Assembly: GCA_027019065.1 (NCBI GenBank)
Contig: JALUXH010000199.1
Coordinates: 1-41,270 of the forward strand
Direction of reading: 5' to 3'
Origin: Anaerolineales bacterium
GTDB taxonomy: Bacteria > Chloroflexota > Anaerolineae > Anaerolineales > DRMV01
DNA length: 41,270 nucleotides
The notes beneath the pieces were generated by a model, which was not told the DNA's origin, did not search any database, and saw nothing but the letters and a program-made list of their open reading frames with translations. Made by a program: the position numbers and the translations under genes. Positions 1 through 35,643 of this stretch are shown in pieces. The first letter of the stretch is position 1; each line of letters opens with the position of its first letter.

Positions 1-2
1 AG

Positions 3-152
3 TTTTGGTTAGACCCGGTGGTCACTTTAGCGGCAAACTACGGATACGGGCGGGCCGAATTGCGGCGCATTGAACGATTGTTACAAAGGCAAATCGCTTT
101 GCTTTGGGAGCGATGGGATGACTTCTGCGGTAGTCACGGTAGCATGGCCTAA
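3..152 (+). CDS. C-terminal part of a DUF4160-like protein (5' truncated by window edge)
   Basis: Frame 3 translates FWLDPVVTLAANYGYGRAELRRIERLLQRQIALLWERWDDFCGSHGSMA*, typical of a DUF4160 C-terminus; overlaps the next ORF. Confidence 0.6.
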   Translation, partial: FWLDPVVTLAANYGYGRAELRRIERLLQRQIALLWERWDDFCGSHGSMA

Positions 153-435
153 GATCATGGCTGTGCGGGTAAGCGAAGATACGCTCAGCGTGGATTTAGA
201 GGATGGGCGGACGATTTCAGTACCCCTGAGTTGGTATCCGCGGCTGGTGTATGCAACAGAGGCGGAACGGCAACACTTTGAGATTGCAGGAGCAGGGTAC
301 GGCATCCACTGGCCAGACATAGATGAAGACATTGGCGTGGAAGGCTTGTTGTTAGGGAAACGTTCCACCGAAAGCCAAACCTCTTTGAAGCGCTGGCTGG
401 CAGAGCGGGAGAAGAAGCGAAAAGATAGCGCTTAA
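118..435 (+). CDS. DUF2442 domain protein
   Basis: MTSAVVTVAWPKIMAVRVSEDTLSVDLEDGRTISVPLSWYPRL...IHWPDIDEDIGVEGLLLG; start moved from 70 to 118 so it overlaps the DUF4160 end. Confidence 0.75.
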   Translation: MTSAVVTVAWPKIMAVRVSEDTLSVDLEDGRTISVPLSWYPRLVYATEAERQHFEIAGAGYGIHWPDIDEDIGVEGLLLGKRSTESQTSLKRWLAEREKKRKDSA

Positions 436-554
436 ACCCGCGACAGCCCCTTCACCAAATACACCTCCCCCCGCGTGAAGCCCCGTTCCAGGTAATACTG
501 CCGGGTGCCCACGGCGGCAATCACGGCCATGCGGCGGAAGCCGGCGGCGCGGGC
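432..554 (-). pseudogene. Duplicated 3' end of elp3 (last 40 codons plus stop)
   Basis: Reads AAGFRRMAVIAAVGTRQYYLERGFTRGEVYLVKGLSRV* on minus strand; 119/123 identical to 2832-2954 at an exact 2400-bp offset. Confidence 0.9.
432..554. repeat. Direct repeat copy A (123 bp)
   Basis: Line-by-line alignment with 2832-2954; mismatches only at 435, 513, 525, 552. Confidence 0.95.
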
Positions 555-598
555 AGTTGTGTAGCCACAGCACCCTGACACTGCAAGTAAAACGAAGA

Positions 599-627
599 CG
601 CCCTGCTGCCAAAGCAGGGCGTTTTTT
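599..627 (+). terminator. Rho-independent terminator-like hairpin
   Basis: CGCCCTGCT-gccaa-AGCAGGGCG followed by TTTTTT; just beyond the 3' end of the R gene. Confidence 0.8.
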
Positions 628-632
628 GTGGC

Positions 633-1490
633 TCAGGCGGCCAAATCAAGCGGCAGGTCGCTGATATCGCGCAGGCGCTGCCCCGAAATCATGGTTTCAA
701 GCAGGCCCTGGGCTGTTTCATCGCCGACTGCCGCAACCGCCTGCTGAAGTTCGGGCAAAGCGACGTGATACACACCATCCAGGTCGCCCGTGCCCAACGC
801 AAGGGAAGCCAGCCTGCCCGGGTGCGGCTCGGCAGTAACCACCACAATGTGCGGTGTATGCCCTTTCCGGTTGCGGATGAGGTTCAGCCCTTCAGTGCGC
901 ACGTTTTGCGAACGGTCGCTGCGGATGGTCCATTTGCAGGAAATGCTGGCGTGCAAGAGCGGCACGGTGTTGTTCACCCGGCGCAACGGTGAAAGGCCGG
1001 CGATGGTGCGCCCTTCAACGAGCTTCTCTCCCCGATTGATCGCTTCGTCAGGAAGCGGCTCACGCGCCACAATGATGTCGGGGGCAATGAGGTAATCCCC
1101 CAATGCCGCCCGCAGCGCCGGATGCGCGTGCAGCGCCTCGGTCAGGTCGGCCAAATGGCGGTATTGGGCGAAATCCTGAATGTGTGCATTGAGGTAAAAA
1201 CGCCAGTCGCCGGGGCGAAGGTGTTGCAGCAAGCCAAAGGCTTCCTCAAGGTAACGGCGGGTAACGCCTTCAAAGGATTTGCCTACCTGCTGCGGCTTGC
1301 GCTCATTCCGCGAAAGGCCACAACCAGCGTTTGTAGCAATGCTTTCCCACATCAAGCGGGCAACCTCGCGGCTGGTTTTGTTGCTCTTATCGGCATTGTT
1401 GGGATAGCCCGCCGAGGAAAGCCAAACCACCTCATCGCAAAGCGCGCGATGATAACGCTGCCGCAAGTTTTGCCACACCGTGGGCGTCAT
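633..1490 (-). CDS. Type II restriction endonuclease, NgoMIV family
   Basis: NgoMIV-like blocks: LLQHLRPGDW, APDIIV, PLLHASISCKWTIRSDRSQNVRTEGLNLIRNRKGHTPHIVVVTAEP, LALGTGDLDGVYH, GQRLRDISDLPLDLA. Confidence 0.93.
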   Translation of the reverse strand: MTPTVWQNLRQRYHRALCDEVVWLSSAGYPNNADKSNKTSREVARLMWESIATNAGCGLSRNERKPQQVGKSFEGVTRRYLEEAFGLLQHLRPGDWRFYLNAHIQDFAQYRHLADLTEALHAHPALRAALGDYLIAPDIIVAREPLPDEAINRGEKLVEGRTIAGLSPLRRVNNTVPLLHASISCKWTIRSDRSQNVRTEGLNLIRNRKGHTPHIVVVTAEPHPGRLASLALGTGDLDGVYHVALPELQQAVAAVGDETAQGLLETMISGQRLRDISDLPLDLAA

Positions 1491-2824
1491 GACACATCTC
1501 CCTCTTTGAGAAAGCCGAGGACATACTCCGAGTGCATCCGCTTTTCAATAGCTGAGCCAATGCCGCCGCGCCGCGTGGGCATCATCCGGCGGTCGCGGTC
1601 CAACTGACGCTCGCCAATGCCCACACAGCGCAGCCCTACCTGCTCGCCAATGGCAGCCAGGCTTTGGGGCACGCGAGCAGGCACGCCGCGCATTGTGCTC
1701 TCGCCCACAACCAACACGGCAACACCTTCAGGCGCAAGCACCCGCCCCATTTCGCTCAATCCCCGGCGCATTTCAGAGAAATACCGGTGAAGCACTTTGC
1801 CCTTTCTGGCATCCACCGCGGCAACTTCAGCCACGGCCTGCATGGCTGCAGGCGGCAGGGCTTCCATTTCAAAGCCCTGCAACGCCTCGCCGCCGATGTA
1901 TTCCTTCCGCAAAGCGCCCAATGCCCGAATGCTGTAGCCCCACCAAATCAGCGAAAACTTATGCGCCCGCATGTAGTCAATGGCGTTGGCAGCATAGGGC
2001 GGCGACGTCACAATGAGGTGAACGCTGTTCGTGGCAAAAGGAAGGCGCTGGGCATCGGCTTCGCTCAACCAGGGGGAAACCGATGGGCGCGGCGGCATTT
2101 GAGCCAACAGGCGTAAAGCCCGCCGTGCTTTTGCACGGAAGGCTTCCACTGCCGAGCGGGGGGCTTTTGCTACTTTATGGGGGCGGGTGTGGGAAAGGTC
2201 GCGTGCCTGCGCCACGCTCCCCGATTTGGCAATGATGATGCTGGAAAACACCACCCGCAAAAAAGGCTGCATGGCAGGCGGGCTTTCCTCAATGGCCGCG
2301 CTCAAAGCAAGCAGTTCCTGCTGGGTTTGAGGCAAAAACCAGTAATCGGCAAAGGCACGGGTGGGGGCGTCCAGGCGGGTTTCCCGCAAAACGGCAAGGT
2401 CTTGGGGGTTTTCCAGCATTTGCCGGGCACGGGTGAGCACGGCGTGGAAAGCCGATTCAAACAATGCGGGGGCCGGCGGGTTGGCTTTGGCCGCCACTAA
2501 CCGCAGCGCCAAAGGGTCAATGTCGGTACCTAACGCCACACGCCCCAGGCGGTGGGCTTCCAAAATCGTAGTGCCGGAACCCATCATGGGGTCAAGCACA
2601 TGGTCGCCGGGCCCGGTGAGGTGGCGGATGAAAAGCCGCGGCAACGCCGGCGGGAATTTTGCAGGGAAAGGATGGAGCGCATGTAGCGGGTCTTCCCCCT
2701 TTTGGCCGTGGAAGTTCAGGTCGCCTTCCAGCAGCAAGCGCAGTTTGGCCGCTTGCGAGGGGGCGGCAACCACTTCGGGACGCAGTTGAGGTTGAGGCAA
2801 GGTGTATTCCAGCGGCAGTTGCAT
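1487..2824 (-). CDS. DNA methyltransferase of the R-M pair (TSPPY motif, probably N4-cytosine)
   Basis: HPFPAKFPP, VLDPMMGSGTT (motif I), VTSPPYAANAIDYMRAHKFSLIWW (motif IV); ATGA overlap with the R gene. Confidence 0.9.
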   Translation of the reverse strand: MQLPLEYTLPQPQLRPEVVAAPSQAAKLRLLLEGDLNFHGQKGEDPLHALHPFPAKFPPALPRLFIRHLTGPGDHVLDPMMGSGTTILEAHRLGRVALGTDIDPLALRLVAAKANPPAPALFESAFHAVLTRARQMLENPQDLAVLRETRLDAPTRAFADYWFLPQTQQELLALSAAIEESPPAMQPFLRVVFSSIIIAKSGSVAQARDLSHTRPHKVAKAPRSAVEAFRAKARRALRLLAQMPPRPSVSPWLSEADAQRLPFATNSVHLIVTSPPYAANAIDYMRAHKFSLIWWGYSIRALGALRKEYIGGEALQGFEMEALPPAAMQAVAEVAAVDARKGKVLHRYFSEMRRGLSEMGRVLAPEGVAVLVVGESTMRGVPARVPQSLAAIGEQVGLRCVGIGERQLDRDRRMMPTRRGGIGSAIEKRMHSEYVLGFLKEGDVS

Positions 2825-2830
2825 AACCTC

Positions 2831-2836
2831 ATTATA
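2831..2836 (-). promoter_or_regulatory. Perfect -10 hexamer (TATAAT) overlapping the elp3 stop, 6 bp before the methyltransferase ATG
   Basis: Minus strand reads GGGTATAATGAGGTTATG; weak -35 candidate TTGGTG at 16-bp spacing; also an RBS-like GAGG. Confidence 0.45.
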
Positions 2837-2954
2837 CCCGCGACAGCCCCTTCACCAAATACACCTCCCCCCGCGTGAAGCCCCGTTCCAGGTAATACTG
2901 CCGGGTGCCCACCGCGGCAATCACCGCCATGCGGCGGAAGCCGGCGGCGCGAGC
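2832..2954. repeat. Direct repeat copy B (123 bp), inside intact elp3
   Basis: See copy A at 432-554. Confidence 0.95.
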
Positions 2955-4442
2955 GATGCGGTCGGCTTCTGCTAACAGTCGCGTGCCCAGGCCGATGTGC
3001 TGGGCTGCGCCTTCCTGGGCCGCGCCTACGGGCAGCGATTGGCCGTAAACATGCACTTCGCGGATGATGGCCGCCCCCGCGAGGTCGGCCATGCCCACAT
3101 CGGGCGCTTCGGGGCGGGGCAGCGAAAGCCGCAGGAAGCCCGCCAGGCGGTCGTCGGGGGTGACGAATTGCAAAAAGTGCTCCTCCGCGTGGGCGGCGGC
3201 GTAGGTGAAGTCTTCCAGCCGCAGCAGTTCGGGGCGCACGGGCTTGCCCCGCACCTCACGGCAGCGGATGCAACGGCAGCGGGTGCCGCGGCGCGCCATT
3301 TCGGCGAGCACATCCTGCCGCAAACTGGTGCGCTTGTTGCCCGCCACCACGTGCGTGGAGGGAATGTCGCGGATCACCCGGTTGATGCGGCAATAGGGCG
3401 GCACGGTGGCCTTCACGTCGGCCAGCAGGTCAACCAGTGCCTCGGTGGTGTAGGGGGTGTAGTTCCCGGCTTTCCAGATTTCGTAGAGTTCGGTGCCGGG
3501 CAGCAGTTGAGCCGGGTAAATTTTCAGTTCGTCGGGGCACAGGCCCTGCCACAGGCGGGCGAAATCGGTGCGGTCGCTCTCCGGCGTGGCACCCAGCAGG
3601 TTGGGCATCCAGTGCGCCACGATTTTGAAGCCCGCCGCCCGCAGCAGCGCCGCGGCGCGCAGGTTGTCTGCCGCTGTGTGGCCGCGCTTGTTGAGGGCTA
3701 AAATGCGGTCGTCCATGCTCTGGAAGCCCACCTGCACCTTGGTCACGCCCAGTTCGCGCAGGCGGCGCAGGGAAGCCGGCGAAACGTGGTCGGGGCGGGT
3801 TTCCACCACCAGCCCCACATTGCGGTGGCGGGCGGTCTCGTTGTGGCGCTGGGCGGCGGCCAGCGAAGGCGCGCGGCACTCGCCTTCCTGCTGCCACGCG
3901 GCAGGGCAGTCGTCGGCGTTGAGGGCGTCGTACAGGCGGCGGATGAACCACGTCTGGTAATCCTTCGGGTAAGCCGTCCACGTGCCGCCGAGCACCAGCA
4001 GCTCAATTTTGTCGGTGGGGTGGCCGACGGCTTCCAGCGCGGCCAGGCGGGCGCGCACCTGGGCGTAGGGGTCAAAGGCGTGCATCAGCGCCCGCTGCGC
4101 GCCGGGTTCGTCGGGCAGGTAACTTTTGGGCATCCGCACATCGTCGGGGCAGAAAATGCACTCGCCCGGGCAGGGGTAGGGCTTGGTGAGCACCGTGACC
4201 ACCGTGACGCCCGAAAGCGAGCGCACCGGCTTCAGGCGGATGCGCGCCAGCAGGTCATGGTCGGCTTCCCACGCGCCGCTTTCCACCAGGCGGCGGTAGG
4301 CCGCCACTAAGGCGCTCTTGCTCAACAGCCCGCGCGGCAGCGGGTGGTGCTTGATGGCCGTCATTACATCCAGGCCGTCGCGGATGGCTTCCAGCGCGGC
4401 CACGGCCTGGGCAAAGGTTTCGGGGGAAAGGTCAGAGGGCAT
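2832..4442 (-). CDS. elp3: Elp3 family radical SAM / GNAT tRNA uridine-modifying enzyme
   Basis: TVVTVLTKPYPCPGECIFCPDD, ELLVLGGTWTAYP, VVETRPDHVSP, KVQVGFQSMDD, C-terminal GNAT domain. Confidence 0.93.
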   Translation of the reverse strand: MPSDLSPETFAQAVAALEAIRDGLDVMTAIKHHPLPRGLLSKSALVAAYRRLVESGAWEADHDLLARIRLKPVRSLSGVTVVTVLTKPYPCPGECIFCPDDVRMPKSYLPDEPGAQRALMHAFDPYAQVRARLAALEAVGHPTDKIELLVLGGTWTAYPKDYQTWFIRRLYDALNADDCPAAWQQEGECRAPSLAAAQRHNETARHRNVGLVVETRPDHVSPASLRRLRELGVTKVQVGFQSMDDRILALNKRGHTAADNLRAAALLRAAGFKIVAHWMPNLLGATPESDRTDFARLWQGLCPDELKIYPAQLLPGTELYEIWKAGNYTPYTTEALVDLLADVKATVPPYCRINRVIRDIPSTHVVAGNKRTSLRQDVLAEMARRGTRCRCIRCREVRGKPVRPELLRLEDFTYAAAHAEEHFLQFVTPDDRLAGFLRLSLPRPEAPDVGMADLAGAAIIREVHVYGQSLPVGAAQEGAAQHIGLGTRLLAEADRIARAAGFRRMAVIAAVGTRQYYLERGFTRGEVYLVKGLSRV

Positions 4443-28641: not shown

Positions 28642-31600
28642 TCATGCCTCTCCAGCAGAATCTTCAAGTTCGGGGGGTAAAACGGGCAGCGTGAACGAGA
28701 AGGTGCTTCCCTCGCCGGGCACGCCGCTGCTTTCCAGCCAGATGCGCCCGCCGTGCATCTCTACCAACGTCCGCACGATAGACAGCCCCAGGCCGGTTCC
28801 GGCAGAGGCCATCACCAGCGGGTTTTCGCCGCGGTAGAAGCGTTCAAAGACCCGCGGCTGCTCTTCCGGCGGAATGCCGATGCCTGTATCCTGCACATCC
28901 ACCTGCACGGCGTCGCCGGCGCGCCGCGCCCGCACCACCACCCGGCCGCCTTCCGGCGTGTAGCGGTAGGCGTTTTCCACCAGGTTTTCGGCAATTTGCC
29001 GCACGCGTTCACGGTCGCCGTAGACCGGCGGCAGATCGGCGGGGATTTCCGCGCTGAAGGTCATGCTGCGGCCTTCCTCTTTTGCCACCCGCGCCTGCTC
29101 GGCAACGACCTCCTGAAGCAGGGCGGCCAGATCCACCGCTTCCAGCGCCAGCGAAATGCGCCCGGCCTCAATGCGGGAGATATCCAGCAGGTCGCCGACA
29201 AGCAGGTTAAGGCGCTCGGTGTTGCTTTTGACGGTTTCCAGGAATTTCTGCTGCTGGTCGGTGAGCGGCCCGGCCGCGCCCATCAGCAGAATGTCCACAT
29301 AGCCTTTGATGGCGGTCATGGGGGTTCGCAGTTCGTGGGAAACCGTGGCCACGAATTCCGATTTCAGGCGGTCGACTTCCACCTGGTGGGTAATGTCGCG
29401 AAACACCGACACCGTGCCCAGGAAATCTTTGCGGTAGAACACCGGCGCCAGGTGAACGGAAACCACGCGCCCGTCTTCCAGTTCCAGACGCTCTTCGTAG
29501 GCCACTTCCTGATCGCGGTAGCCTTCCGGTTCGGCAGACCAGTGGTGGATGGTTTCCATCCATTGGCGGCCTTCGCGGCCGAAAAGGCCCACGAAGTGTT
29601 CCAGCGGGCGGTTGAGGGCCTGCCCGGCGGGCAGGCCGAGGATGCGCTCGGCGGAAGAGTTGAAAAGGGTGATGACGCCTTTTCGGTCGGTCACGAGGAC
29701 GCCGTCGGCAATGGCTTCCAGAATGGCGCGGGCGCGGCTGGCTTCCACTTCCTGCTGGCGGAGCAGGCCGCCCAGCCGTTCGGCCTGTTCCCGAATCAGG
29801 TTGAAGAGTTCGGCATTGTTGATGGCCACGGCCACCTGGCGGGCGGTCGCAGAGGCCAGGTCAAGGTGGTAGTCGGTGAAGTGATGGGGCTGCGAGTGGA
29901 AGAGCAGCAGGGCGCCGAGCACATCCTGCGCCACTACCAGCGGCACGCCGATGACACTGCGGTGGGAAATCGGCAGCCCGTGGTCTTTTTTGCGCCAGCG
30001 GGGGTCTTTTTGCAGGTCGGGCACCAGCACGGCCTGGTTGTGGGCGATGATCCACCCGGCGAAAGAATCGGTGGCGGAAATATCGGTCGGGCGGCCGCCG
30101 AGGGGCGGCTGTTCGGCATAGCCCCGCCCGGCGCGCAGAAACAGCGTGGGGGCGTCGGGGCGTTTGAGCAGAATGCTGCTTTGCTCGGCGCTCAGGGCGT
30201 CGTTGAGCAGGTCAAGGGTGCGGTTGAGCACCTGGTCAAGGTCAAGGCTGGCCGAAAGTTCGGTGATGATGCGCAGCAAGGTTTGGGCGCGGTGGTGTTC
30301 CTGCTGCAGCCGGCGGGTGCGGTCGGCCACTCGGGCTTCCAGTTCTTCGGTAAAGCGGCGGCTGGCGGCGTAAAGGCGGGCGTTTTGGAGGGCGACGGCG
30401 GCCTGTTTGGCAAGCGTTTGGACGAGTTCAATTTCATCGCCGGTGAGGGACGCTTTTTCGGGCAGGTGGATGAACAGCGTTCCGAAGAGGGTTTGTCCGG
30501 CCGGAAGCGGCACGACGGTGACTTTGGGGGCGCGTGCAGCCAGGAAGGCTTCCAGCGGCTGCAAAAGCGGCTCGGTGTGCACGTCGGCATCGGCCAGCAC
30601 GCCCAGGCTTTCGGCAAGATGGGCAAAAACGGGCGCAAAGGGCAGTGTTTGGGGCAGGGGCTGCTCTTTTGGGGCGGGGGCTGTGGCCAGCAGGGTGGGG
30701 GTTTCGTCTTCCAGCAGCACAAAGGAAACCGCGCGGTTGCCCAGCGCCTCGTGCAGGCGGCGGGTGGTGTATTCGGCAATGTAAGCCGGGTCGAGCGATG
30801 CGGAAAGTTCGGCGGTCACTTCATAAACCAGCGCCAGACGGCGGGTGCGGTGGTCAAGTTCTTCGGCGTGGCGGCGCACTTCTTCGTAAAGGCGGGCGTT
30901 GCCCAGCGCGGCCGCGGCCTGCCCGGCAAAGGTTTCGGCCGTTTCAACCCAATCGCGGGTGAAGAAACCCGGTTCTTGCTTTTCAAGGGCAATCACGCCC
31001 AGCACTTCGTCTTTGAACCGCAGGGGCAGCCCCAGCCAGGAGCGGTTGGGCACGGCTTCCGGCGCCGGAAAGCGGTCGTCGGCGTGGGTGTCTTCCACAA
31101 CCAGCGCCTGACCTGAATCCAGCATTTCCTGGAAGAGGCGGCTGTCTTCCACGGCAATGGTGATGCCGAGCAGTTCTTCGGCGTTGGGGAAGCCGCGGGC
31201 GTCGCGCACCTGCAGCCGGTTGCCTTCCCGCAGCCAAAGGGTGCCGCCGTCGTAGGGCAGCACGGCAGCCAGGTGTTCAAGCAGCGAGGTTTCCACTTCT
31301 TCCAGCGAAAGGCTGCGCGCCACCAGGCCCGACGAGGCGCCGGCGAGGGCGTGCAGTTGCGAGGCGCGCCGCTCGGCCGTGCGCAGCAGGCGGGCGTTTT
31401 CCAGGGTGAGGGCCGTTTGCCCGGCCAGCGACACCACCAGCGACTGGTCTTCGCGGGTGAAGGCCGCCGTGGTGTTGAAGTTATCTAACACAATCACGCC
31501 CAGGGGGCGCTCGCCGGCGCGGATCGGCACCATCATGCTGGAAACCGGGATGCGGTCGGCCGTGGCGCGGCGGTAAGCGGTCAGGGCGTCTGATGCCAGC

Positions 31601-34600
31601 GGGTAAGCGGCGGCGAAGTCCAGTTCGCCAATGCGCCGCGGGCGGCCTTCCAGCATCACCTGCGCGGGCAGGCTGGTTTGCGGGAAGGTGATGGCGAGCA
31701 TGGCGCCGGCATCGGCATAGCCGCCGGCGACCTGGGGCTGAAGTTCGCCGCGCTCGGCATTCCACAGCGCCACGAAGCCGGCGTGGGCGTGCTGCAACGC
31801 GCTGAGGGTGCTTTCCATGAGGGTTTGGAGGATGCGGTTGGGGTCCAGCACGCCCAGCTGGCGGCTGAAGGTCAGCAGCAGGTCCACTTCCTGCAGGCGG
31901 CGGGAAGTGTGCGCCAGCAAATCCAGGTTTTGGAGCACGATGCCCACCTGCCGCCCCACGAGGTCAAAGATCATTTCGTCCTGAGCGGTGAAGGAAGGGG
32001 TCGGCATACTGGAAGTCGCCAGCACGATGTGATCTACGGTGGGCGTCTGGCTGCCCTGCTGCTCCACCAGCACAGGGAAGGCGACAAAGCTCTGCGCCTG
32101 CAGCCGCTGCAAAAGGGGTGAGCGCTGCCATTCGGGGGTGCGGTCTATATCGGAAACGACCAGCACCTGTTTCTGGTGGAAGGCTTCGGCCAGGGGGTTG
32201 CGCTGGCCGAGGAGCATATCCAGTTTGAGGGCGGGGGGCAGTTCTCCGAAGGTTTGCAGCAGGCGGACGCCGCCTTCTTCTGTTGCGCCGGGCACAAAGG
32301 GCGTGGGTTCGGCAATGAGCACGTAGTTGAAGCCGAAGCGCTCCATCAACTGGCGGCCGAGGGTTTGCAGCACGGCCGTGTGGCTGGGCTGCCGGTTGAG
32401 CAGGGCGGTGATTTCCAGGCTAATCCGCAGCCGTTCGGCCTGCCGGGCCAGGGCGTAGCGGTCAAGGGTTTGCTGCAGGTCTTTGTGCAGCCAGCGGGGG
32501 ATGTTGTTTTGCGCCTGGCGGGCGGCCGCTTCGGCTTCGGCCACGCGGTCGGTCAGGCGCTGCCGGTCGGTTTCCCATTCATCGGCCAGGTGCTGCACCT
32601 GCAGCAGCCAGGCCGCGGTGGCGGCAAACAGGCGCAGGATGTCTTGGGCGGGGGCATCGGGGCGGCGGGCGTCGCTGGGGGCATCAAGGTAGAGCAGCCC
32701 CAGCGGCTCGCCCTGGGTGGTACGCAGGGGGGCCAGCAGCAGGTCGCGCGGGTGCCAGGTGCGCGCGTCGGCGTGAGCGGGCATCGGGCGGGAAATTTCA
32801 GGCAGCGCCAGGCTGGCAGGCAGCCGGGGGCGTTCTTCCTGGGGAATGAAATACACACCGTGCTGTTGAAAACGGTCTTCCAGCAGCAGGCTGAGGTCAT
32901 CCCACCGGATGGGCTGCAGGGTTTCCATGCCCACCGAAGCCACCGGCTGCAAATGGCCGTTCTCGTCCAGGCGGGTCAGCAGCACGGCGTCGAAGCCCAG
33001 GGCTTCGCGCACCAGGGTTACAAAGGCCTCCACGGCCTCGCGCGGGGCCTCAAGGGGATGGGCTTTTTGCAAATAGCGTTGCAGCAGGTGCAGGGCGCGC
33101 ACCTGCCGTTGAAGGGCGACGTTTTCCTGAAAGAGGTTTTGGGCGTGCCGGGCGCTGCCCACGGCCAGGGCAATGTGTTGCGCCAGAAGGCGGGCGAATT
33201 GCTGCCGCGCGCCGCTGAAATGGTTGGGGTGGCGGCTGTGCAGATGGATCACGCCGACGAGGGTGTTTTGATAGCGCAGGGGCAAAGCAAGGGATGCCCG
33301 CACGCCTTCATGGGGCTGGGGGTAAGCCGCCACGCGGTAGTCGGCCACCTGCTCCGGGGTGCCGTGTTCCAGGGCGGCGTGGTCCAGGGGGTGAAAATGG
33401 AATTCGCAGGGCCCGCCGGTGTGGTGCAGCACCTTCCAGCCCCCGTTGGCACCGGCAGCCACCAGCATGGTTTGGCCGCAGTCGGCTTCGGTCAGCGCCA
33501 CCATTTGCTCATGTGCATAGGCCAGCAGTTGTTCTAACGACGAAAAAGCCGCCAGTTCCCGGCTGAGGCGGGTGAGGGTGCTCAGTTCCTGCACCTGGGT
33601 GCGCAGGGCTGCGTCGCTGCGGCCGAGCAGGCGCTGGCGCTCCACGCCGATGGCCATTTGGGCGGCGGTGGCGGCGGCCAGCTGCAGGTCGTTGCGGTCA
33701 AAATGGCCGGTTTGCGGGTGGCCGAGCAAAATTTCGCCCATGTTCTCGCCGTGCGCCTGCAGGGGCACCACAATGGCCGAGCGCACATCGCCCAAAGCCC
33801 GCAGCAGGGGGCGGTACGCGGCAATCACCCGCCGGTCGGTGGTCAGGTCGGCGGAAAGGAAAGGCCGCCCGGAACGGGTCACGGTGAGCGGGAAATCGGG
33901 GGCATTGGAAGGGATGGTGCCAATGGCGCGGGCTTTTTCGGGCGAAATGCCAAACAGGGAAGGTTCATGGGGGGCCAGTTGCGTTTGGTGTTCGTCCAGC
34001 AGCAACACGGCGGCGTAGCGGGCATCGACCAGGCGAGCCAGTTCCACCAGCGAGAATTTGAACAGTTCATCCAGGGTGGCAGGCGAAGCGGTCAGGCTGG
34101 CAATGCGGCGGAGGGCTTCCGCGCGGCGGGCGCGCTGGCGGGCTTCCTGGAAGAGCACCGCGTTTTCCAGCAGGGGGGCCACCTGGGCGGCAATCAGCGT
34201 GAGCACTTGCAGGTCGTCGTCGCCAAAGGGGCTGCCATCGGGCTTGTTGGCCGCCTGCAAGAAGCCGAGGAAGCGCTCGCCCGTGGTCAGAGGATAGAGC
34301 ACACTGGCATGAACGCCCGCCGTGCGGTTGAGTTCATCCAGGCCGAGGGTTTGCCAGCGGGCATCGGCGGCGGCTTCTTCTGTGGTCAGGGGTTCACCGG
34401 CCAGCAGCAGGGCTTCGGCTTCGCTGCCTGCCGGAATGCGCGTCTGGTAGGCGGCCACAAAACCCTCGGGAAGGCCGACAAACGGCCATTGCGCCGCCAG
34501 GGTGCGGTGGACTTCGTCGTAAAGCAGGAAGCCCAGCATTTCGGCCGGAAGGAGGGGACGGATGTTTTCCAGAATGCGTCCGACCAGTTCCTCAACCTGC

Positions 34601-35643
34601 CGCGCGCCGCCCACCGAGCGGGCAATTCCGGCCAGGCTGCGGAGTTCTTCCAGACGGCGGCGGGTTTCGCTGAACAGGCGGGCGTTGTGCAGCGCCAGCG
34701 CCACTTCCCGCCCGATGAGCGCCAGAAATTCCAGATCCGAGCGGCTGTACGCGGCGGGCGAGAACAAGGCCACTTCCAGCGTGCCCACCATTTCTTCGCC
34801 CACTTTGAGGGGCACGCCCATATAGGCGCGCAGCGGGTGGCGGCGGCGGTCCACCGCCGGCGGCACGGGGGTGTACCGGTCAATATCGTCCAGCAAAAGC
34901 GGCTGCTGCCGGCCGACCAGATAGCCGGTCAGGCCTTCATCGGGGGCGTAACGGGCAGGGGCAGGGACGGCTTCCACCCCCCGGCCGGTCGCCATGTAGC
35001 GGTGAGGCACCAGCCCCTGGTGGCGTTCATCCCAAAGGGTAATTTCCAACACATCGGAAGGCAGCAGGCGGTCCACGGCCTCGGCCACGGCCCGAATGGC
35101 TTCTTCCAGGTCAAGGCGGCTGCCGATTTGCTCGCCCAGTTCCAGCAAAACTTTCAGGGCTTCGGAAGGCGGTGCGCCTTGCGCCGTCTGTTCGCCGGCG
35201 GCTGCCATCAGGCGCGCCGGCCGCAGCGTGACGACCAGCGCCACGCCTTCGGGGGAAGGCACGGCAAACGAGGCGCCTTCCAGGGCGCGGGTGCTCAGGG
35301 TGAGCCGTGCGCGGCCCGGGGCCGCGGAAAGGCGGATGAATTCGTCGGAAGGGCGGATGCGCTGGGCAAGGAACTCCAGGGAAGGCTGGTCTTCGGGCAA
35401 AAGGCCAAACCATTCGCGGGCGCGGGCGTTGAGATAACCCACCCGACCGCCGGCCAGCACAACCACTACGGCGTCTTCGTCGTTTTGGAGGTGGGCAAAG
35501 GTGGCATCTGCAGGTAATGCAAGGGGCATGGCGCCGCGCGTCACGGCTTCCCCCAGCTGCGTCATGGTACGGGCAACGAGCCACAGGCCCGCGCCGATAA
35601 GGGTCAGCGTAATGCCTAACGCAACGGCTTCGGTTCCAAACAT
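28642..35643 (-). CDS. Giant multi-GAF/PAS sensor histidine kinase (2333 aa)
   Basis: N-terminal TM helix, PAS, about ten GAF-like modules by eye (recurrent ..ALxNARLF.. ends), second PAS, HisKA FVATVSHELRTPMTAIKGY, HATPase N/G1/G2 boxes. Confidence 0.93.
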   Translation of the reverse strand: MFGTEAVALGITLTLIGAGLWLVARTMTQLGEAVTRGAMPLALPADATFAHLQNDEDAVVVVLAGGRVGYLNARAREWFGLLPEDQPSLEFLAQRIRPSDEFIRLSAAPGRARLTLSTRALEGASFAVPSPEGVALVVTLRPARLMAAAGEQTAQGAPPSEALKVLLELGEQIGSRLDLEEAIRAVAEAVDRLLPSDVLEITLWDERHQGLVPHRYMATGRGVEAVPAPARYAPDEGLTGYLVGRQQPLLLDDIDRYTPVPPAVDRRRHPLRAYMGVPLKVGEEMVGTLEVALFSPAAYSRSDLEFLALIGREVALALHNARLFSETRRRLEELRSLAGIARSVGGARQVEELVGRILENIRPLLPAEMLGFLLYDEVHRTLAAQWPFVGLPEGFVAAYQTRIPAGSEAEALLLAGEPLTTEEAAADARWQTLGLDELNRTAGVHASVLYPLTTGERFLGFLQAANKPDGSPFGDDDLQVLTLIAAQVAPLLENAVLFQEARQRARRAEALRRIASLTASPATLDELFKFSLVELARLVDARYAAVLLLDEHQTQLAPHEPSLFGISPEKARAIGTIPSNAPDFPLTVTRSGRPFLSADLTTDRRVIAAYRPLLRALGDVRSAIVVPLQAHGENMGEILLGHPQTGHFDRNDLQLAAATAAQMAIGVERQRLLGRSDAALRTQVQELSTLTRLSRELAAFSSLEQLLAYAHEQMVALTEADCGQTMLVAAGANGGWKVLHHTGGPCEFHFHPLDHAALEHGTPEQVADYRVAAYPQPHEGVRASLALPLRYQNTLVGVIHLHSRHPNHFSGARQQFARLLAQHIALAVGSARHAQNLFQENVALQRQVRALHLLQRYLQKAHPLEAPREAVEAFVTLVREALGFDAVLLTRLDENGHLQPVASVGMETLQPIRWDDLSLLLEDRFQQHGVYFIPQEERPRLPASLALPEISRPMPAHADARTWHPRDLLLAPLRTTQGEPLGLLYLDAPSDARRPDAPAQDILRLFAATAAWLLQVQHLADEWETDRQRLTDRVAEAEAAARQAQNNIPRWLHKDLQQTLDRYALARQAERLRISLEITALLNRQPSHTAVLQTLGRQLMERFGFNYVLIAEPTPFVPGATEEGGVRLLQTFGELPPALKLDMLLGQRNPLAEAFHQKQVLVVSDIDRTPEWQRSPLLQRLQAQSFVAFPVLVEQQGSQTPTVDHIVLATSSMPTPSFTAQDEMIFDLVGRQVGIVLQNLDLLAHTSRRLQEVDLLLTFSRQLGVLDPNRILQTLMESTLSALQHAHAGFVALWNAERGELQPQVAGGYADAGAMLAITFPQTSLPAQVMLEGRPRRIGELDFAAAYPLASDALTAYRRATADRIPVSSMMVPIRAGERPLGVIVLDNFNTTAAFTREDQSLVVSLAGQTALTLENARLLRTAERRASQLHALAGASSGLVARSLSLEEVETSLLEHLAAVLPYDGGTLWLREGNRLQVRDARGFPNAEELLGITIAVEDSRLFQEMLDSGQALVVEDTHADDRFPAPEAVPNRSWLGLPLRFKDEVLGVIALEKQEPGFFTRDWVETAETFAGQAAAALGNARLYEEVRRHAEELDHRTRRLALVYEVTAELSASLDPAYIAEYTTRRLHEALGNRAVSFVLLEDETPTLLATAPAPKEQPLPQTLPFAPVFAHLAESLGVLADADVHTEPLLQPLEAFLAARAPKVTVVPLPAGQTLFGTLFIHLPEKASLTGDEIELVQTLAKQAAVALQNARLYAASRRFTEELEARVADRTRRLQQEHHRAQTLLRIITELSASLDLDQVLNRTLDLLNDALSAEQSSILLKRPDAPTLFLRAGRGYAEQPPLGGRPTDISATDSFAGWIIAHNQAVLVPDLQKDPRWRKKDHGLPISHRSVIGVPLVVAQDVLGALLLFHSQPHHFTDYHLDLASATARQVAVAINNAELFNLIREQAERLGGLLRQQEVEASRARAILEAIADGVLVTDRKGVITLFNSSAERILGLPAGQALNRPLEHFVGLFGREGRQWMETIHHWSAEPEGYRDQEVAYEERLELEDGRVVSVHLAPVFYRKDFLGTVSVFRDITHQVEVDRLKSEFVATVSHELRTPMTAIKGYVDILLMGAAGPLTDQQQKFLETVKSNTERLNLLVGDLLDISRIEAGRISLALEAVDLAALLQEVVAEQARVAKEEGRSMTFSAEIPADLPPVYGDRERVRQIAENLVENAYRYTPEGGRVVVRARRAGDAVQVDVQDTGIGIPPEEQPRVFERFYRGENPLVMASAGTGLGLSIVRTLVEMHGGRIWLESSGVPGEGSTFSFTLPVLPPELEDSAGEA

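What the first reader, a model, noticed from the sequence alone, without database searches (positions are those of the whole stretch)
432..2954. All differences between the two elp3 3' ends are synonymous: the element may bring its own replacement gene end
The four mismatches (435/2835, 513/2913, 525/2925, 552/2952) are all third-codon positions: GTT/GTA, GCC/GCG, GCC/GCG, GCC/GCT. A dead fragment decaying after duplication should mutate at any codon position. Homology starts exactly at the stop codon. This fits copy B being an imported, functional 3' end from another lineage's elp3 that restores the target gene, with copy A the displaced original.
Basis: partly seen in the sequence, partly recalled or inferred. 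Interest (0 to 1): 0.78.

Follow-up and report, generated by a model that had tools for sequence, protein, structure and literature searches.

The report
Duplicated elp3 end flanking restriction-modification genes
A small restriction-modification gene pair in an uncultured Anaerolineales bacterium sits between two nearly identical copies of the tail of its neighbour gene elp3; this looks like an ordinary scar of recombination around a mobile defence cassette, and the "all differences are silent" pattern does not show that the gene tail came from another lineage.

Summary
The repeat is real: 432-554 and 2832-2954, 119/123 identical, all four mismatches at third codon positions. Between the copies lies an NgoMIV-type restriction-modification (RM) cassette (MTase 1487-2824, REase 633-1490, minus strand).

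The inference drawn from the mismatches fails. Mismatch 435/2835 is a junction: the A at 435 belongs to the stop codon of the neighbouring DUF2442 gene. Outgroups place 525/2925 and 552/2952 in copy B, the functional gene end. Only 513 arose in copy A, and one silent change has chance 0.29.

Same-genus G002 has elp3 joined to the same RM cassette at a near-identical junction, without copy A. The RM-elp3 link therefore most likely predates the duplication. A and B are each other's nearest relatives (3/111 differences, against 6-7 to G002) and share a lost elp3 stop, although the 111-bp tree resolves this weakly. Elp3 shows no identity step near copy B, so there is no sign of a foreign donor.

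Best reading: a fragment of an elp3-RM allele from the same or a sister lineage recombined at the elp3 end, leaving copy A beside DUF2442. Tandem duplication with loss of the second RM is nearly as likely. This resembles the known "RM with ~100-bp target duplication" pattern.

The parts
1..152 (+). 3' part of a DUF4160 gene, cut by the contig end
   Evidence: translation; weak Pfam DUF4160 match of the fragment (E 0.045), full-length homologue in G002 E 2e-15
70..435 (+). ORF of the DUF2442 gene (true start probably inside); its TAA stop is 433-435 and overlaps the edge of copy A
   Evidence: Pfam DUF2442 E 6e-24; homologues in G002 and G011 lie elsewhere, not beside elp3
432..554 (-). copy A: truncated elp3 3' end (40 codons + stop); continuous identity to copy B runs 436-554 apart from three substitutions
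   Evidence: absent after the RM cassette in G002 and G003
555..632 (-). RM downstream flank with a GC-rich hairpin terminator (598-622); homologous to the flank in G003 down to about 563
   Evidence: BLASTN 563-1455 vs L047, 91%; alignment; terminator scan
633..1490 (-). NgoMIV-family type II restriction endonuclease, predicted GCCGGC cutter
   Evidence: Pfam NgoMIV_restric E 3e-102; PDB 1fiu E 4e-73, PD...SCK...E and RSDR stretches conserved
1487..2824 (-). DNA methyltransferase of the RM cassette (N6_N4_Mtase family; DPMMGSGTT and TSPPY motifs)
   Evidence: Pfam N6_N4_Mtase E 1e-20; PADLOC MTase_II; sequence
2825..2836 (-). MTase leader TATAAT-GAGGTT: a perfect -10 box 6 nt before the ATG that also supplies the present elp3 stop codon (GTA TAA T)
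   Evidence: TATAAT boxes also precede the MTase in G002, G010 and G011; TATAAT occurs only 27 times in 241 kb of this genome, both strands
2832..2954 (-). copy B: 3' end of the intact elp3 gene
2832..4442 (-). elp3 (radical SAM/GNAT tRNA-modifying enzyme)
   Evidence: NCBIfam TIGR01211 ELP3 E 3e-144

Best explanation
An NgoMIV-type RM cassette became fixed directly behind elp3 in an ancestor of this species and G002 (shown by the shared junction). Later, inside this lineage, a DNA fragment holding the last ~120 bp of elp3 plus the RM cassette and its terminator recombined by a single homology-anchored crossover with an elp3 allele that had the DUF4160-DUF2442 pair as its downstream neighbour (inferred). 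The result is elp3 + copy B - RM - copy A - DUF2442. The elp3 end next to the RM completes the gene; the displaced end is a dead scrap. The 554|555 joint is where the incoming fragment was closed or joined non-homologously (inferred). The two 123-bp repeats can in turn excise or amplify the RM cassette (inferred). Donor and recipient were the same or sister lineages, not a distant one.
For: The elp3|MTase junction is shared with G002, with elp3 and RM equally diverged (~92.5%), and copy A is absent there and in G003. So the RM insertion is older than copy A, and A-B divergence (3/119, 95% CI 0.5-7.4%) is below the 8.1% elp3 divergence to G002 (Poisson p = 0.013, or 0.08 with the local distance). 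A and B share TAG->TCG and +G relative to G002, and TAG is also present in G005. Copy A is bounded on one side by the exact elp3 end with an in-frame stop against a different gene, and on the other by an arbitrary mid-gene joint, as expected for two elp3 alleles brought together by one crossover. Precedent: in E. coli, re-circularised fragments carrying a lacZ end integrate by single crossover and leave duplications of 109-950 bp of the gene end (PMC3240628).
Against: No genome with elp3 directly beside DUF2442 was found. Copy A seems to reach ~5 bp (CGGGT) into the RM leader, which fits a tandem duplication of the RM unit equally well. Only three substitutions date the event, and the 111-bp tree is weakly resolved. 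Gene conversion between A and B could make an older duplication look young.
Confidence: 0.42

Rival explanations
1. In-situ tandem duplication of the unit [elp3 last 123 bp + RM + terminator], followed by replacement of the second RM copy by the DUF4160-DUF2442 pair. Copy A is a remnant of the second unit; nothing was imported.
For: A and B are nearest neighbours. Copy A runs past the ancestral elp3 stop into what looks like the RM leader (CGGGT). Tandem amplification of RM units through flanking direct repeats is described (PMC3031569).
Against: Needs the second RM to be replaced cleanly at the leader, leaving an in-frame stop for a dead fragment. No tandem unit was seen in any relative.
Confidence: 0.3
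2. Classical RM insertion with long target duplication: the RM entered the elp3/DUF2442 boundary and duplicated 123 bp of target in one step.
For: Geometry and size (order of 100 bp) match the described class (PMC3874152; PMC3031569).
Against: The RM sits at a near-identical junction in G002 without any downstream repeat, and A-B divergence is below the G000-G002 divergence, so the RM insertion is older than the repeat unless A was lost in G002 and G003 and converted here. No flanking repeats at homologous RM cassettes in G007, G008, G010, G011 or G016.
Confidence: 0.12
3. One reading: RM plus a replacement elp3 end came from a clearly different lineage.
For: B and G002 share the elp3|MTase junction, including the T at 2835.
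Against: B is no closer to G002 than A is (7 vs 6 of 111). B and A share derived states. Identity to G002 is flat across elp3 and RM. The all-synonymous pattern has no weight.
Confidence: 0.05
4. Assembly artefact: the 76-bp identical core (437-512) let two real molecules (elp3-DUF2442 chromosome and an elp3-RM chromosome or circle of another strain) be joined in the metagenome assembly.
For: The record is a metagenome bin in 277 contigs; the contig ends in the DUF4160 gene; 76 bp is within range of assembly k-mers.
Against: Both outer junctions (554|555 and DUF2442|A) lie outside the identical core and need real reads; elp3-MTase linkage is independently supported by G002.
Confidence: 0.11

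Closest known systems
RM insertion with long and variable target duplication (Nobusato 2000, Furuta 2010; cited in PMC3874152 and PMC3031569)
   Same: A bare type II RM cassette with no integrase or transposase, flanked by direct copies (~123 bp) of host sequence taken from a gene end.
   Different: Comparison with G002 and G003 indicates that the RM insertion predates the repeat, so the repeat is probably a later recombination scar rather than a target duplication made at insertion.
Single-crossover integration of a gene-end fragment / homology-facilitated illegitimate recombination (PMC3240628)
   Same: One homologous anchor at a gene 3' end, one arbitrary joint, partial gene-end duplication of 109-950 bp.
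   Different: Here inferred from an uncultured genome; no donor molecule or empty site observed.
NgoMIV-type GCCGGC restriction enzymes
   Same: REase closely matches NgoMIV (PDB 1fiu) along its full length; homologues occur on many plasmids.
   Different: Partner MTase is of the N6_N4 family; by general knowledge (not tested here) M.NgoMIV is a C5 methyltransferase.

Membership tests
NgoMIV-family type II RM system | REase homologous to NgoMIV over its full length with conserved PD...SCK...E and RSDR stretches | tested here: met
NgoMIV-family type II RM system | adjacent cognate DNA methyltransferase | tested here: met
   MTase overlaps the REase by 4 bp; pair conserved in G002, G007, G008, G010, G011, G016
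NgoMIV-family type II RM system | recognition of GCCGGC | tested here: inconclusive
   no extra depletion of GCCGGC in RM-bearing genomes (O/E 0.59, 0.58) against RM-free relatives (0.50, 0.49)
RM insertion with long target duplication | direct repeats of order 100 bp of host sequence flanking a bare RM | tested here: met
RM insertion with long target duplication | repeat made at the time of RM insertion (empty site holds one copy, no RM) | tested here: not met
   G002 and G003 carry the RM without a second copy and A-B divergence is smaller than that between species; subject to gene conversion
Integrase-type element attacking a gene 3' end and restoring it | element-encoded site-specific recombinase | tested here: not met
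   only MTase and REase ORFs lie between the repeats
Single-crossover integration of a gene-end fragment | donor circle or linear fragment and an RM-free recipient locus | not tested

The most novel reading that the evidence does not exclude
Bare RM cassettes travel between close relatives as homology-anchored units that carry the 3' end of the gene they sit behind, so the host gene is completed by the incoming end while the old end is pushed downstream; the -10 box of the MTase doubles as the stop codon of the host gene, tying the two together.
Probability: 0.15. Interest if true: 0.5.

Novelty: new member of a known kind. Interest (0 to 1): 0.25.

Why it matters
It is a datable example of how small integrase-free defence cassettes move: comparison with relatives suggests that a repeat which looks like a target duplication can be younger than the insertion it flanks. 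It also shows that an 'all differences are synonymous' argument collapses once changes are polarised and junction bases are removed.

Tried and rejected
1) Codon-position test of four sites: rejected, because one site is a junction and two changed in the functional copy.
2) Foreign donor for copy B: no identity step along elp3 and no affinity of B over A to G002; the 111-bp tree is too short to settle sisterhood (no starred branches; AU p 0.34 for the alternatives).
3) Flanking repeats as a habit of this RM family: none at homologous cassettes.
4) GCCGGC avoidance as a sign of RM activity: no signal.
5) A GCCGGC site (540-545) lies 9 bp from the 554|555 joint, which might suggest cleavage-driven joining; with 48 sites in 41 kb this is easily chance.
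6) btuF tail at 555-575: the alignment to G003's flank is better than shuffles (4/5000 for 32 nt; 0.0044 for 17 nt) but short, and the motive to look arose after seeing it; not used.
7) Furuta 2010 (PMC2853133) is not held, so the target-duplication class is cited through later papers.

Full report
Setting. The window is the whole 41,270-bp contig G000:C199 of a metagenome-assembled genome (2.48 Mb, 277 contigs). Its nearest named relatives are Anaerolineales MAGs. Reading the minus strand: elp3 (4442-2832), MTase (2824-1487), REase (1490-633), a hairpin terminator (598-622), copy A (554-432), then a convergent DUF2442 gene (ORF 70-435, +) behind a DUF4160 gene cut by the contig end.

The observation. 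The two 123-bp copies and the four third-position mismatches are as described, and no further copy exists in the genome. The edge needs correcting. On the coding strand copy A reads CTG TCG CGG GT|TTAAGCGC and copy B CTG TCG CGG GT|ATAATGAGGTTATG. The DUF2442 gene ends in its own CTTAA, as does its homologue at an unrelated place in G002, so the A at 435 belongs to that gene. The T at 2835 belongs to a TATAAT box before the MTase; TATAAT boxes also occur before the MTase in G002 and at unrelated loci in G010 and G011, although TATAAT is rare in this genome (27 in 241 kb, both strands). Site 435/2835 is therefore a junction.

Polarity. In the codon alignment of relatives, codon 510 (site 513) is GCG in B, G002 and G005 but GCC in A: a change in A. 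Codon 506 (525) is GCC in A, G002, G005 and G009 but GCG in B. Codon 497 (552) is GCC in A and all close relatives but GCT in B. Two of three substitutions are thus in the working gene, where silence is expected (86 of 128 elp3 differences between G000 and G002 are third-position; three out of three has p = 0.30). The single change in the dead copy is silent with p = 0.286. The main argument of the finding has no force.

Relatives. G002 (same genus) has elp3-MTase-REase with a near-identical elp3|MTase junction (CATAACCTCATTATACC on the + strand, one G shorter just inside), elp3 and RM both about 92.5% identical to the window and flat along their length. Downstream of its REase lies an unrelated gene and no elp3 end. 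G003 carries the REase with a flank homologous to the window down to about 563 and then a btuF-like gene, again without copy A; its elp3 contig breaks near the gene end, so adjacency there is not shown. G004, G005 and G009 have no RM and a different gene after elp3 in each. In G007, G008, G010, G011 and G016 related RM cassettes lie elsewhere and have no flanking repeats. The link elp3-RM thus most likely predates the split from G002, while copy A is known only here.

Timing. A-B differ at 3/111 aligned codon bases, A-G002 at 6 and B-G002 at 7; all others with full coverage are at least 22 apart. If A and B had separated with the species, about 9.6 differences would be expected over 119 bp (p = 0.013; 0.08 with the local distance). 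A and B also share the loss of the elp3 stop (TAG in G002 and G005, TCG here) and one inserted G. A tree of 111 bp is too weak to prove it: alternatives pairing either copy with G002 are not rejected (AU p = 0.34). Gene conversion between A and B is the main caveat.

Mechanism. Two models fit. (i) A fragment holding the elp3 end and the RM cassette recombined by a single crossover with an elp3 allele that had DUF2442 behind it. This explains why copy A is cut at an arbitrary mid-gene point on the RM side, yet ends at an in-frame stop against DUF2442. A direct experimental precedent exists in E. coli, with lacZ-end duplications of 109-950 bp from re-circularised fragments (PMC3240628). (ii) A tandem duplication of [elp3 end + RM + terminator], the second RM then being replaced by DUF4160-DUF2442. 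This explains why copy A reaches into what looks like the RM leader (CGGGT). I give 0.42 and 0.30. Insertion with long target duplication as first described for RM systems (PMC3874152; PMC3031569) matches the geometry but not the order of events. An assembly join inside the 76-bp identical core cannot be excluded without reads. Shown: the repeat, the junctions, the shared RM-elp3 linkage in G002, and the polarity of the changes. Inferred: the recombination route, the DUF2442-bearing recipient allele, and any later excision or amplification.

Consequences. The RM is an NgoMIV-type pair with the catalytic and CCGG-contact stretches conserved (residue roles from general knowledge). Depletion of GCCGGC does not reveal its activity. 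In this species the -10 box of the MTase also supplies the elp3 stop codon, so the two genes now overlap functionally.

Verdict. Real repeat, over-read evidence. It is a new member of a known kind of RM-associated rearrangement and of modest interest.

Noticed in passing
window 2829-2838 (-): The elp3 stop codon of this species lies inside the TATAAT box of the downstream MTase (GTA TAA T); in G002 elp3 stops earlier at TAG. Stop loss with rescue by the RM promoter.
   Followed up: partly
L115, L119 (G008, G016): Homologous RM cassettes in other genera also appear to start 5-7 nt after a stop codon of a different upstream gene, suggesting that insertion directly behind gene ends is a habit of this RM family.
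   Followed up: partly
window 555-575: Short stretch resembling the 3' end of the btuF-like gene that follows the RM in G003; may be a remnant of an earlier downstream neighbour.
   Followed up: partly
window 540-545 and 2940-2945: A GCCGGC site (predicted target of this RM) lies 9 bp from the 554|555 joint; site density makes chance likely.
   Followed up: partly
window 28642-35643 (-): 2333-aa hybrid sensor kinase with about ten GAF domains, a PAS domain, HisKA and HATPase_c, followed by a response regulator/GGDEF gene.
   Followed up: no
elp3 downstream region in G000, G002, G004, G005, G009: The gene following elp3 differs in every close relative, so this junction seems to be a site of frequent rearrangement.
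   Followed up: partly
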